From Taxawa tesnikishii (nom. ined.) (lineage: Eukaryota > Ascomycota > Dothideomycetes > Dothideales), in NCBI GenBank assembly GCA_030247885.1, contig JAPDRO010000003.1, positions 1,922,001 to 1,986,000 of the forward strand: a stretch of 64,000 nt of DNA. The letters run 5' to 3'. The notes under the pieces are model-generated. The model was not told where the DNA came from. It did no database searches and saw nothing but the letters and a program-made list of their open reading frames with translations. How positions within the stretch are numbered: the stretch's first letter is position 1; each line of letters starts with the position of its first letter. Positions 1,575 through 61,227 of this stretch are shown in pieces. The position numbers were made by a program, and so were the translations under genes.

Positions 1575-4190
1575 CTAGGATGCCTCCAAACCCTCAATGT
1601 CCTCTTGCTTCTTCTTCTCCATCTCCACCTCCGCATAAGCGGGCGGGGGCAGTGCTTCCCCTCCTTCAACCCAGACCTTGCTAAGCTTCGTTTCGATTTC
1701 CTGCCTGCGTCTCTTCCATTCCTCAACTTTCTCGAGCCGTTCCCGCAGCTCATGCAATTCCTTTTCCACGCTGTCTTTCTCGCTTTCGGTGCCGATGCGC
1801 TGAAACTCCCACTCGTTGCCTTGGTGGCCCAGGCCCAGCGTGAGCGTGAAGCTGTGAAAGCGTTTCAGGGAGGCGCGGGTGGAGATGGTTATGAGGGCTA
1901 AAAGCACATCAGCACTTGACACGGATGTACATGGGCTTTCCACAAAACGGTTCGATGACTGGGAAAGGTAAAACGAAGCAGGGGAGGAAAGAAAGGAAAG
2001 GATGGGAGAAAAACGTACTGATGCCTCTCGCCTTTGCCATTTCGTACAGCAAGCCCTCAACGTCGCTGCTGACGGCACTGGTTCCCTCGTCTACGAAGGC
2101 GTACTTGGGCTCGTGGTACAGCAGCCTCGCGATGCCCATGCGCTGCTTCTCGCCACCGGAAAGTACGTCCTTCCATTCTTTGCGCGTATCCCAGCCGCCT
2201 TCGCGGTTCGTCAAATAACCAAGTCTGGCGTCCTCGAGCACCTGCTGCAGCTCGTGTTCCGTCCTTGAGGCATCTTTCATATCCATGGCCGTGTGTGGAT
2301 AGATGACCTGGTCCCGCAACGTGCCGGGACTCAGGTACGGCCGCTGAGGGAGGAACATGATGCCGTCCGTTCCCGTGGCTCGAGGCCGGGATACCAAGCC
2401 GCGATACGTTGGCCAGAGTCCGGCGACGACGCGGGCGACAGCGCTCTTGCCCGCGCCGTTCGGACCTGTGATCAGGAGATGTTCACCCGAGTGCACGATC
2501 ACGCTCAGGTTCTCGATGAGCTCCTCACCGCCTGCTGGGTACAGGTTCGGCGCGACGATGGGCACATTCTCTAACCTTACGCCATCGAAACCTTTGTGGA
2601 CGGTGCCTTGTACGTCAGGCAGCGAGTATGGCTCTGGATACGAGTTGCGTGGTGTGAAGTAAGCGTTTGCGTGCACTCGGTGTAATGTCGAAATAAGAGT
2701 GTAGACGCGCGAGGTGTAGCCCGCAAGCTCGGAGAGATCCTTGATGCTGTACATCATGCGGCCACCGGCATCGGCGAGAGAGCATAAGGCGTTTGTTGGT
2801 GACGAACTGTCTCATCCTGCCGCCATTCGAGTCACTTGCTGATGAATCTGCATCACCTGGCTTTACGGGATTGCCAGCCGGGTCTGCGTAGTCCGGTTCG
2901 CTCATGCCGCCCCAAGCCGGAAGAAACACTGGGAGTGAAGTAATCAGGTATCCAAACGCAGACCATGAATACTTGAGAACGAAGTCCTCGAGTATGTTAT
3001 ACCGAATCTTGAGGCTGTAAATCCTTTCCATCCACTCCTTTAGCTCTCGAAAGCCCTTGTCAAGGAACACTTTCTCCATCTGATCCCCCCGTAGAAAGCA
3101 ACCTCTTCCGCGTTTGCGATGAGGCGAGCATGGAGGGCCCTGAAATCGCCTTCGCGCTTTCCCTCGACCGCTTTCAGCTTTCCGAAGGGCGGCGATAGCC
3201 GTCGCAGCAAAGCAGCAGTGGCAAAATAGTTTGCAAATAATCCGGACAGAGCTAACGGGCCGAGTGAGCGGTAGAGCTGATAATTGAAGACGATGAGGTC
3301 CACAAATGGCTTGCCCAGACTGGAGTACAGGGACGCAGCTGAATCGCAGAAGAGCGTTAGGTCTTGGGTGATGAACTGATCTGCACCCGTACCCACGCCG
3401 CCATCAAGGTTAGACAGCTTGTAGAAGTTTAGGTTGTCGTTTAGGTAGAGGTCGTGTATGTATCGAGTCAGACGCGTCCGGAAGGCAATGGACACCTTGG
3501 ATTGCAGGAACTTGATCATCGAGTTTGTGTATGAAGCAAAGCCACCAATGGTACACCACTTCAGGATGCCCCAGAGAAATGCTTTGCCTCGGCCGGCGAC
3601 AAGATCCCGTACAATCTCTCCGTCTAGTCTAGCGACGACCAAAGAGAGGTAGGTGCGCAGAAGCAAGAACGCACCATGGCTGAAGAGCAAGCCCGTTTCC
3701 TTGCTCGTCCATCGAGGTATCATGATGTTCAACAGACTGAGGAACTGGTGCAAAAGGCGAGGTTGAGCCCCGGCTTTGTCTGCGGCGGAGGGACTTGCGG
3801 TAACCGTCCGTCACCCAGACCGGCCGCTCTTGGTGGCTGCAGGAAGAGTCTCCGGTGTGCGTCAAAGGTTGTTGGCTTTGTTGGGTATATGGTGACTCTC
3901 GATGTGGTATGCTTATAGGGTACGTATATCGTCCTTGAGCCATCTTTTCCTCTCAAGCCAGAGTTCCTTCTGAGCAGGCGCCTCCCGGTCTCTTTTTCTT
4001 TCCGTTTGGCTGTCCACCATTGGAAGCCACCATAACTGGTTGTAATGATGCTGATTGCAAGAGCAAGAGTCGCTAGCAATTGGCTCGCTCGCGACGTGTG
4101 CTTCCATCTTCCCCGGATACGGTCCAGGTATCGCTTCAGCAAAACGGAGATGGGGTGTTGTGCGTGTCGAAGGGTGGATTGTGCCGCCAT
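1575..4190 (-). CDS. PXA1: Peroxisomal ABCD half-transporter for long-chain fatty acyl-CoA (Pxa1-like)
   Basis: This is an ABC half-transporter of the ABCD/adrenoleukodystrophy family, which imports long-chain acyl-CoA into peroxisomes for beta-oxidation. It starts MAAQSTLR at 4190; the N-terminal membrane region carries family segments such as SRASQLLATLALAIS and FRTRLTRYIHDLYLND, followed by the EAA-like segment ANAEEVAFYGG. The nucleotide-binding domain has Walker A GPNGAGKS, signature LSGGEKQ and Walker B YAFVDEGTS. One intron, 1898-2018 (GTACGT..TTTTAG), precedes the last exon. The reading frame jumps three times: at the A4 run 3752-3755, the C6 run 3085-3090 and the CT repeat near 2777-2783 (one, one and two bases short). 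Allowing for these the product is about 832 residues, a normal length. Sequencing errors are the likely cause, since both flanks of each break stay conserved. Pxa1 rather than Pxa2 is my judgement from overall similarity. Confidence 0.88.
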
Positions 4191-4479
4191 ACTGTATGTG
4201 TGGTATTCATTGACCGCAACTGGAAGTACAGAGAGACAGGAATAAGAGCATCACGACAAGCAGTGTGTCAAGTGCGTAGTACGGGGTGACGATGATGTCT
4301 TGTAGGAACTGGACTGACATGTGAAAGGAAGCGGACGCAGATCCCTCGGCTGAACGTCTTCCCCATGAAGAGGTCACGCGTGGAGGCGGCCCGCTTTGTC
4401 GACATGGTCACTATACTTAGCACGTACATCAACCACCCATCTATCTCGCACACTATACAGTAACAGCGGCATGGCAAGA

Positions 4480-59539: not shown

Positions 59540-61227
59540 CTATTTCAAGCTCCACTCGCCGTCCTTCTCCACAATCTCCACGCTCCTCTTCTCATCCAAA
59601 CTCCTCCTTCCGGCCTCCAAGATGGCGCCGGTAGCAATGGTGTTCTTCAGCGTCGGCAGACCGCGCTTGTCCAGCTCGTCCAGCGTCACCTTGCCATCCT
59701 TGAGGTCTGCGATGGCGTCGACGAACTTCTCGAAGGAAACATAACCGTATCCGCCCTGGCCGGCGAAGTTGCCGGACTCGTCGGGTGCGTACTTCATGTA
59801 GAACCTGCGGAAGGAACGTTAGTGAAGATCTTGAGCGCAGTGGGCGGAGCATCCAGGGTAGGGATTAGAGGTCGAGAGGAGGGGATGTACTCACGGGTTG
59901 TACCACATCAGCTGACCCTGGTCATCCTCGGCTACGTCGTATCCTCTCTTGGCTTGGTTGACTCTGACCTCGCCCTTGCTCGCCATGTAGTGGAAGTATT
60001 GGTTGGAATGGACACCGGCCTTCTGCGGGGCGGTCCAGCTCGAGGTGTAGACACCGGTCGCTCTCCTGCCGCTGCCGTCCTTCTTCTCCCAGTCCACGAC
60101 CAGCGTGATGGTGTCCTCCGTCTTCGGGTCACATCCCAGATCCGTGGCGATACCCGTCGAGGCGCTGGCGGTGACCTTTGTGGGGCGGTACGAGGGCACC
60201 ATGGACTCGTTGACGTCGATGTGATGCGAGTTGAGGTAGTAGCTGATGTCCGAGTCCTTGCCGGCCCAGGCCTTGAAGGTCTCGAGCTGGCTCTTGGGCT
60301 GGCTCATGTAGGAGTAGAAGTAGTTGAAGTCGCCGAGGTTCTTGGCCTTGGCGCGGGCGTCCGAGTAGGCAGGATCGAAGCGCTTGTGGTGCTCGATGTA
60401 GACGAAGACGCCGTGCTTGCGGGACTCCTCGAGGAGGGTGAGGTGGTCCTGCAGCAGCTTTGTGGCGGGCTTGGTGATCATGACGTGGATTTTACGCTGG
60501 ATGGCGTACAGGGCAATGGGGAAGTGGGTGGGGTCAGGAGTGAAGATGGTGATGGCATCGCCAGGGAGAGGGCGTCGATGGCGGTCTTGTAGGCTTCTGG
60601 GTCGCGCTTGTCGTTTTCTGGGAACGAGTCGAAAGAGGTGTCGAGGTTGTTGTAGACCTGGGTGATGTTCTTGTTCAGGTGTTCGCCTGGAGTGAGGTGT
60701 CAGGAGCCGTGAGAGAGAGACGCGCCCGTCTCGCCGCCCGTGCACTCAAGCTGGGACTAGAACCGAGCAGATGGGGCTGTATGCGACACTGCACCGCGAG
60801 TTCATTCTGCCCTTGGCGACCATGGGCTCGCAGCGTGTTCGTCATCACCGTCTTCGGGGCCACCACTGCGTGCGATCCAGCGATCAAGCTCGTCCAGACA
60901 GCGAAAGAGAAGGATCAGACTCACGGATAGCAGGGAATTTGTTTCCAGACTAGTCTCGCATCAGCATGATTGTCTTCGCCAGGAGTACTACGTTATTGTA
61001 CTTACAGTGCCGACCATGGACAGCTTGCCGACCTTCCCCTCCTTCGCAGGTCAAACAGTGTCAGACCGACAACACCGACCTTCTTGTCAGAACCGGACAT
61101 TCCGCCGCCCACGAAACCGGTCGTGTACTCGCCGGTACCTTATGGAGGTCAAACCCAGAGCCATTGGAGCAGCGCTTGCAACCCTTTGCACGAACTCACC
61201 AACCATGAGCACATTGAGAGGCGCCAT
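59540..61227 (-). CDS. Gfo/Idh/MocA-family NAD(P)-dependent oxidoreductase
   Basis: About 414 residues in five exons: 61200-61227, 61006-61138, 60925-60949 (25 nt), 59895-60686 and 59540-59804. The start MAPLNVLMVGTGEYTTGFVG is a Rossmann nucleotide-binding loop. Then come HLNKNITQVYNNLDTSFDSF, GDAITIFTPDPTHFPIALYA, the family lysine motif as ITKPATK, and the C-terminal barrel (YFYSYMSQPKSQLETFKAW, HHIDVNESMVPSYRP). Family members oxidise or reduce sugars, inositols and sugar acids; the substrate here is unknown. Two one-base gaps are inferred, near 61034-61039 and at G3 60564-60566. The 25-nt third exon (SGNKFPAIR) is supported by good splice sites on both sides and by continuous family sequence across it. 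The gene is divergent from an aldolase. Confidence 0.85.
60925..60949 (-). other. 25-nt microexon of the oxidoreductase gene
   Basis: Flanked by ACTAG acceptor and GTGAGT donor; encodes SGNKFPAI plus one base. Upstream and downstream introns are 56 and 238 bp. Confidence 0.7.

What the first reader, a model, noticed from the sequence alone, without database searches (positions are those of the whole stretch)
1575..61227. Systematic one-base deletions in short homopolymers across many genes
At least twelve genes (ABC transporter, ankyrin protein, PRP45, cysteine-rich protein, HERP-like, TRA1, DUF4188, EFM4, ARK kinase, GPI protein, F-box protein, oxidoreductase) switch frame at one to three points, about twenty in all, while amino-acid similarity continues right across. 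Nearly all need one extra base, and most sit in runs of three to six identical bases; one is a CT repeat. Essential and non-essential genes are hit alike, and nine genes have none. This is the footprint of uncorrected sequencing deletions rather than gene decay, and it means automated gene calls from this sequence will be fragmented.
Basis: partly seen in the sequence, partly recalled or inferred. Interest (0 to 1): 0.7.

Follow-up and report, generated by a model that had tools for sequence, protein, structure and literature searches.

The report
Sequencing deletions splitting fungal genes
Many genes in this stretch of fungal DNA look broken because the genome assembly is most likely missing single letters in short repeats, a known sequencing fault rather than a property of the organism.

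Summary
A coding-frame model with introns and free frame switches finds 16 switches in 11 of 21 gene models of the window; 15 of 16 are of the lacks-one-base type. Four are crossed by one continuous protein family (PRP45, TRA1, peroxisomal-type ABC half-transporter, and, weakly, Monooxy_af470-like). The interpretation also holds. The rate is the same elsewhere in the assembly (0.41 per coding kb in the window, 0.42 in 50 control loci) and scattered like a Poisson process. Lacks-one-base switches outnumber the other type 52:17. An estimated 73% (57-88%) sit in runs of three or more identical bases, with relative rates of 11 at observed runs of four and 33 at five or more. In-frame nonsense is rare (0 in window, 3 in controls), slippery heptamers are absent from lacks-one-base sites (0 of 52), and mismatch-repair families are present. 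Two redundant mitochondrial contigs differ by four one-base losses in 1.36 kb, three of them in short homopolymers. Best reading: uncorrected long-read (nanopore-type) consensus error, ordinary in kind, not biology. No reads were available to prove any single site.

The parts
1575..3723 (-). Peroxisomal-type ABC half-transporter (ABC_membrane_2 + ABC_tran); two frame switches, 90% intervals 2772-2799 and 3078-3098
   Evidence: ABC_membrane_2 positions 1-228 in one frame, 212-269 in the next; ABC_tran in a third frame. No domain crosses the 2772-2799 switch
5383..5894 (-). Ankyrin-repeat gene; one switch, interval 5737-5771
   Evidence: loss without switch only 5.3 nats
6230..7806 (-). PRP45 (SKIP/SNW); one switch, interval 7213-7285
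   Evidence: the SNW domain (1-72, then 71-158) and the solved Prp45 9l5r_R (to residue 259, then onward) continue across overlapping frames
15245..17460 (+).
   Evidence: an intron at 16565-16635 is almost as good (1.5 nats)
24867..36483 (-). TRA1; one switch, interval 30110-30146
   Evidence: the match to 9ynu_A ends at residue 2160 in one frame and resumes at 2161 in the next; the open frames overlap by 133 bases
39735..40602 (+).
   Evidence: profile 3-40 (weak, E 0.046) then 37-118 (E 1e-21) across the first switch; loss without both switches only 2.9 nats
41535..42443 (-).
   Evidence: Methyltransf_31 match starts at profile position 29 at the switch; solved relatives gave nothing useful
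42895..46265 (+).
   Evidence: loss 22.0 nats; no homology evidence across the switch
47326..48825 (+).
   Evidence: loss 23.6 nats; no Pfam match in the pieces searched
53421..55739 (-).
   Evidence: WD40 propeller repeats in both frames around the first switch; no Pfam support at the second
59540..60845 (-). GFO/IDH/MocA oxidoreductase; two switches, intervals 60552-60574 and 60676-60699
   Evidence: domain match begins at profile position 64 at the first switch; the upstream pieces have no match; loss without both switches 4.4 nats

Best explanation
The assembly is a long-read consensus that was not, or not fully, corrected with accurate reads. Roughly one base per 3 kb of coding sequence is missing, mostly because homopolymer runs (true length about four and up) were called one base too short. 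Each miss in an exon shifts the frame, so a healthy gene reads as two or three overlapping open frames. Shown: frame switches between overlapping frames, excess of the lacks-one-base type, run preference, uniform rate, disagreement of duplicate mitochondrial contigs. Inferred: that the genome itself has the longer runs, and that the platform was nanopore-type.
For: Window 16 switches in 38.9 kb of coding, controls 53 in 125.5 kb (0.41 and 0.42 per kb; lacks-one-base alone 0.39 and 0.29, p = 0.41); 52 lacks-one-base against 17 other, p = 2.9e-5; over 20 ten-kb loci mean 1.5, variance 1.53. Posterior mass at runs of four or more 0.152 against 0.041 by chance, at five or more 0.054 against 0.007, 0 of 1000 shuffles reaching either; the other type (16 of 17 usable) shows no excess at three or four. 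Share in runs of three or more 0.73 (0.57-0.88). Deletions simulated at random places are not drawn to runs (172 events, 0.029 against 0.036 at four or more). Protein families continue across switches in conserved genes. Nonsense 0 in window, 3 in controls. Duplicate mitochondrial stretches: the C28 copy spans 1357 bases where C26 spans 1361; three one-base gaps plus an A run of five against six. Three of the four losses are in runs of five or six; the fourth lies in a tRNA, at a place I take for the T-loop, and lowers that tRNA from 62.6 to 57.2 bits. Precedent in a nanopore-only fungal assembly: PMC7500977 (passages).
Against: No reads, polished assembly or transcript were available, so no single site is proven. 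The other type is not free of run signal: 0.036 against 0.007 at five or more (24 of 1000 shuffles), and 3 of its 16 intervals hold a slippery heptamer against 0.77 expected. The two mitochondrial contigs may differ for another reason (heteroplasmy, low coverage of one); one block of five mismatched columns also separates them, and between tRNAs at 8801 and 9224 it is C26 that is one base shorter. The deficit of G/C runs of six (7 seen, 34.7 expected) shrinks with an order-4 model (2 against 8.2 coding, 5 against 16.5 non-coding), where A/T runs show little deficit, and clean E. coli shows part of it (5 against 10.8). Of 47 listed 5S genes 44 have length 120, and 30 of 30 aligned have no gap, though under two losses were expected. 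About 27% of lacks-one-base events are outside runs of three or more. PMC7500977 reports more over- than under-calling after polishing, the opposite direction.
Confidence: 0.96

Rival explanations
1. Missed introns: short introns, not missing bases, shift the frame.
For: Introns are called often here (14 in the window, 108 in controls), the model missed a stop-free one in PRP45, and in the HERP-like gene an intron is almost as good as a switch (1.5 nats).
Against: Overlapping frames at all 16 places; homology to solved relatives resumes at the next residue in TRA1 and without a gap in PRP45; forbidding switches costs the window 153 nats (1310.8 to 1157.8); introns have no reason to favour one shift direction or homopolymers.
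Confidence: 0.02
2. Real gene decay: the strain has accumulated frameshift mutations.
For: Frames are broken in the sequence as given.
Against: TRA1 and PRP45 (essential in budding yeast; recalled) are hit; nonsense is rare (0 in window, 3 in controls) where decay should bring it; the rate is the same in the other loci sampled; in TRA1 both pieces match the same solved chain at over 2300 bits.
Confidence: 0.01
3. Mismatch-repair-deficient hypermutator strain with real one-base losses in runs.
For: One-base deletions in short runs resemble the spectrum of mismatch-repair loss (recalled).
Against: Four long-frame MutS_V matches (open frames of 601-999 aa) among eight rows and three MutL-family matches are present (open frames do not prove function); so many losses in conserved genes should not be viable in a haploid (inference).
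Confidence: 0.005
4. Programmed frameshifting or transcriptional slippage that restores the frames in the cell.
For: Homopolymers are slippage-prone (recalled); 3 of 16 intervals of the other switch type hold a slippery heptamer against 0.77 expected.
Against: No X XXY YYZ heptamer (AAA or TTT as second triplet) in 0 of 52 lacks-one-base intervals, 2.2 expected at random; two or more switches in 5 of 11 hit window genes; the same rate in genes throughout the sample.
Confidence: 0.005

Closest known systems
Homopolymer indel errors of nanopore-only assemblies, e.g. Drechmeria coniospora (PMC7500977, passages seen)
   Same: A filamentous fungus; conserved genes split by one-base errors, the majority in homopolymers; the paper says roughly one fifth of its (single-exon, conserved) genes were wrong after long-read polishing and that short reads corrected homopolymer lengths.
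   Different: There, errors were more often over-calls after polishing; here lacks-one-base switches dominate 52:17. Here 53 of 133 gene models carry a called switch.
Indels in nanopore assemblies of filamentous ascomycetes at low depth (PMC9453082, passages seen)
   Same: Indels in and, less, outside homopolymers in conserved genes of low-coverage assemblies, even after Racon and Medaka.
   Different: Depth and platform of the present assembly are unknown.
Gene-fragmenting errors of long-read assemblies in general (Kastor, PMC12007338; Polypolish, PMC8812927; only titles and starts of abstracts seen in the listing)
   Same: Frameshifts that make genes look like pseudogenes; homopolymer-length errors.
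   Different: Those works concern small or bacterial genomes.

Membership tests
Uncorrected long-read (nanopore-type) consensus errors | Bias to one-base deletions | tested here: met
   52 against 17, p = 2.9e-5
Uncorrected long-read (nanopore-type) consensus errors | Concentration in homopolymers, rising with run length | tested here: met
   relative rates 0.3, 0.3, 1.7, 11.0, 32.8 for observed runs of 1, 2, 3, 4, 5+
Uncorrected long-read (nanopore-type) consensus errors | Uniform over the assembly, regardless of gene | tested here: met
   0.41 against 0.42 per coding kb; chi-square 18.4 on 19 df over 20 ten-kb loci
Uncorrected long-read (nanopore-type) consensus errors | Also seen in sequence that is not protein-coding, between duplicate copies | tested here: met
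   four one-base losses between mitochondrial contigs C26 and C28 over 1.36 kb; one stretch only
Uncorrected long-read (nanopore-type) consensus errors | Long G/C runs depleted in the consensus | tested here: inconclusive
   runs of six: 7 against 34.7 expected, weaker with an order-4 model, partly seen in E. coli (5 against 10.8)
Uncorrected long-read (nanopore-type) consensus errors | Accurate reads show the extra base | not testable with these tools
   no reads available
Pseudogenes / gene decay | Frameshifts accompanied by nonsense mutations | tested here: not met
   0 in window, 3 in controls
-1 programmed frameshifting | Slippery heptamer at the switch | tested here: not met
   0 of 52 lacks-one-base intervals
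Mismatch-repair hypermutator | Loss of MutS/MutL homologues | tested here: not met
   both families present, most matches in long open frames; function not tested

The most novel reading that the evidence does not exclude
The shorter runs are real in the DNA and the fungus restores the frames at RNA or ribosome level (transcriptional slippage or pervasive frameshifting at homopolymers), genome-wide.
Probability: 0.005. Interest if true: 0.95.

Novelty: not a real feature. Interest (0 to 1): 0.1.

Why it matters
As biology it most likely does not matter. As data quality it does: 53 of 133 gene models in the sampled 358 kb carry a called frame switch, so gene counts, pseudogene claims, gene-loss claims and domain architectures from this assembly are unreliable until it is corrected with accurate reads.

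Tried and rejected
Missed introns, decay, hypermutation and programmed shifting were tested and rejected as set out above. The homopolymer-length spectrum was tried as a coding-independent test and is only suggestive. 5S genes were too short in total to be informative. A ribosomal RNA test failed twice because the machine gave no answer. Naming the organism from genome size and contig number in the paper library gave nothing. Solved relatives were no use for the methyltransferase pieces.

The coding model was first trained on long ORFs of the same sequences that it then parsed, so absolute counts carry some circularity; the E. coli and synthetic controls address this only in part. In E. coli its calls at gene junctions split 30 lacks-one-base to 21 other, and it called 19 introns where there should be none. 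Some of the 17 switches of the other type, and some near gene ends, may be false.

Full report
What was examined. The window lies at positions 1922001-1986000 of contig C23 of an unnamed 29.37-Mb, 34-contig assembly. Its eS7 and Tra1 are nearest, among solved structures, to eS7 5oql_p and Tra1 9ynu_A; that this points to a filamentous ascomycete, probably of the Sordariomycetes, is my inference. No tRNA and no Rfam family was found in the window.

The observation. I wrote a gene model that parses both strands with codon-phase statistics, fungal introns, and equally penalised one-base switches in either direction. In the window it gives 21 gene models, 14 introns, 15 switches of the type lacking one base and one of the other type, in 11 genes. 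At each of the 16 the flanking open frames overlap, by 22 to 568 bases. Homology pieces searched apart agree. SKIP_SNW runs 1-72 in one frame and 71-158 in the next, and the solved Prp45 9l5r_R is matched to residue 259 in the first frame and onward in the second. TRA1 matches 9ynu_A to residue 2160 and then from 2161. ABC_membrane_2 runs 1-228 and 212-269; Monooxy_af470-like 3-40 (weak, E 0.046) and 37-118. In the methyltransferase and the oxidoreductase the domain match begins in mid-profile at the switch. WD40 repeats lie in both frames around one switch of the WD40 gene. The other nine switches rest on the coding model alone. The weakest is the HERP-like gene, where an intron does almost as well.

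Controls on the method. Sixty synthetic clean genes (90 kb) gave no switch; with 38 planted deletions 34 were found within 60 bases. On 150 kb of E. coli K-12 the same recipe gave 51 switch calls, 49 within 100 bases of listed gene ends, as expected where operon genes abut; the two others include one in the annotated pseudogene ygaY. It also gave 19 intron calls there, which are false. Of the 69 fungal switches 61 lie more than 100 bases from the ends of their gene models, though this does not exclude a fused pair of genes.

Across the assembly. In 50 further loci (294 kb from 25 of the 34 contigs) 53 switches fall in 125.5 kb of coding, 0.42 per kb against 0.41 in the window; 42 of 112 gene models are hit. 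Among the 20 ten-kb loci lacks-one-base counts fit a Poisson process (chi-square 18.4, 19 df). This type outnumbers the other 52:17.

Context. Each switch is located only to a median 90% interval of 34 bases, so I weighted positions by posterior probability and compared with the same weights laid at random coding places of the same locus. Lacks-one-base mass at runs of four or more is 0.152 against 0.041, and 0 of 1000 shuffles reach it; the other type shows no excess at three or four, but one at five or more (0.036 against 0.007, 24 of 1000). Deconvolution puts 73% (bootstrap 57-88) of lacks-one-base events in runs of three or more. Deletions simulated at random places are not drawn to runs.

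Independent of coding. Over the 1.36 kb read, the C28 copy is four bases shorter (1357 for 1361): three one-base gaps and an A run of five for six, three of the four in runs of five or six. A block of five mismatched columns at 978-985, at the edge of the tRNA at 906-978 of L052, also separates them. Before this stretch one offset step goes the other way, C26 being one base shorter. The arms of the palindromic contig C25 also drift by one or two bases between paired matches. I read these as replicate readings of the same DNA that disagree by single bases; heteroplasmy is not excluded.

Rivals. Nonsense, allowed at the same penalty, is 0 in the window and 3 in the controls, against decay. MutS and MutL families are present, against a hypermutator, though presence is not function. 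Slippery heptamers are absent from the 52 lacks-one-base intervals, though 3 of 16 of the other type hold one against 0.77 expected; the former speaks against programmed shifting.

What is known. Nanopore-only assemblies of filamentous fungi show this kind of fault (PMC7500977, PMC9453082, passages seen). I saw nothing here that needs a new explanation.

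Noticed in passing
G000 contigs C26 (25,424 bases) and C28 (15,354 bases): Two contigs hold the same mitochondrial-type tRNA cluster, so the assembly is redundant for that DNA.
   Followed up: partly
G000 contig C25, about 5,000-80,000: A palindromic, multi-copy contig with mitochondrial-type tRNAs; its matches to the C26 stretch are only 77-96% identical: perhaps a second fungus in the sample or a chimeric assembly of another organelle genome.
   Followed up: partly
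7444-7509, strand -: PRP45 holds a stop-free in-frame stretch of 66 bases without counterpart in the solved relative, with intron-like ends (GT...CTAAC...CAG); likely an intron that the frame model missed.
   Followed up: partly
L055:8571: One of the two E. coli switch calls away from gene ends falls in the annotated pseudogene ygaY, perhaps a real break found by the method.
   Followed up: no
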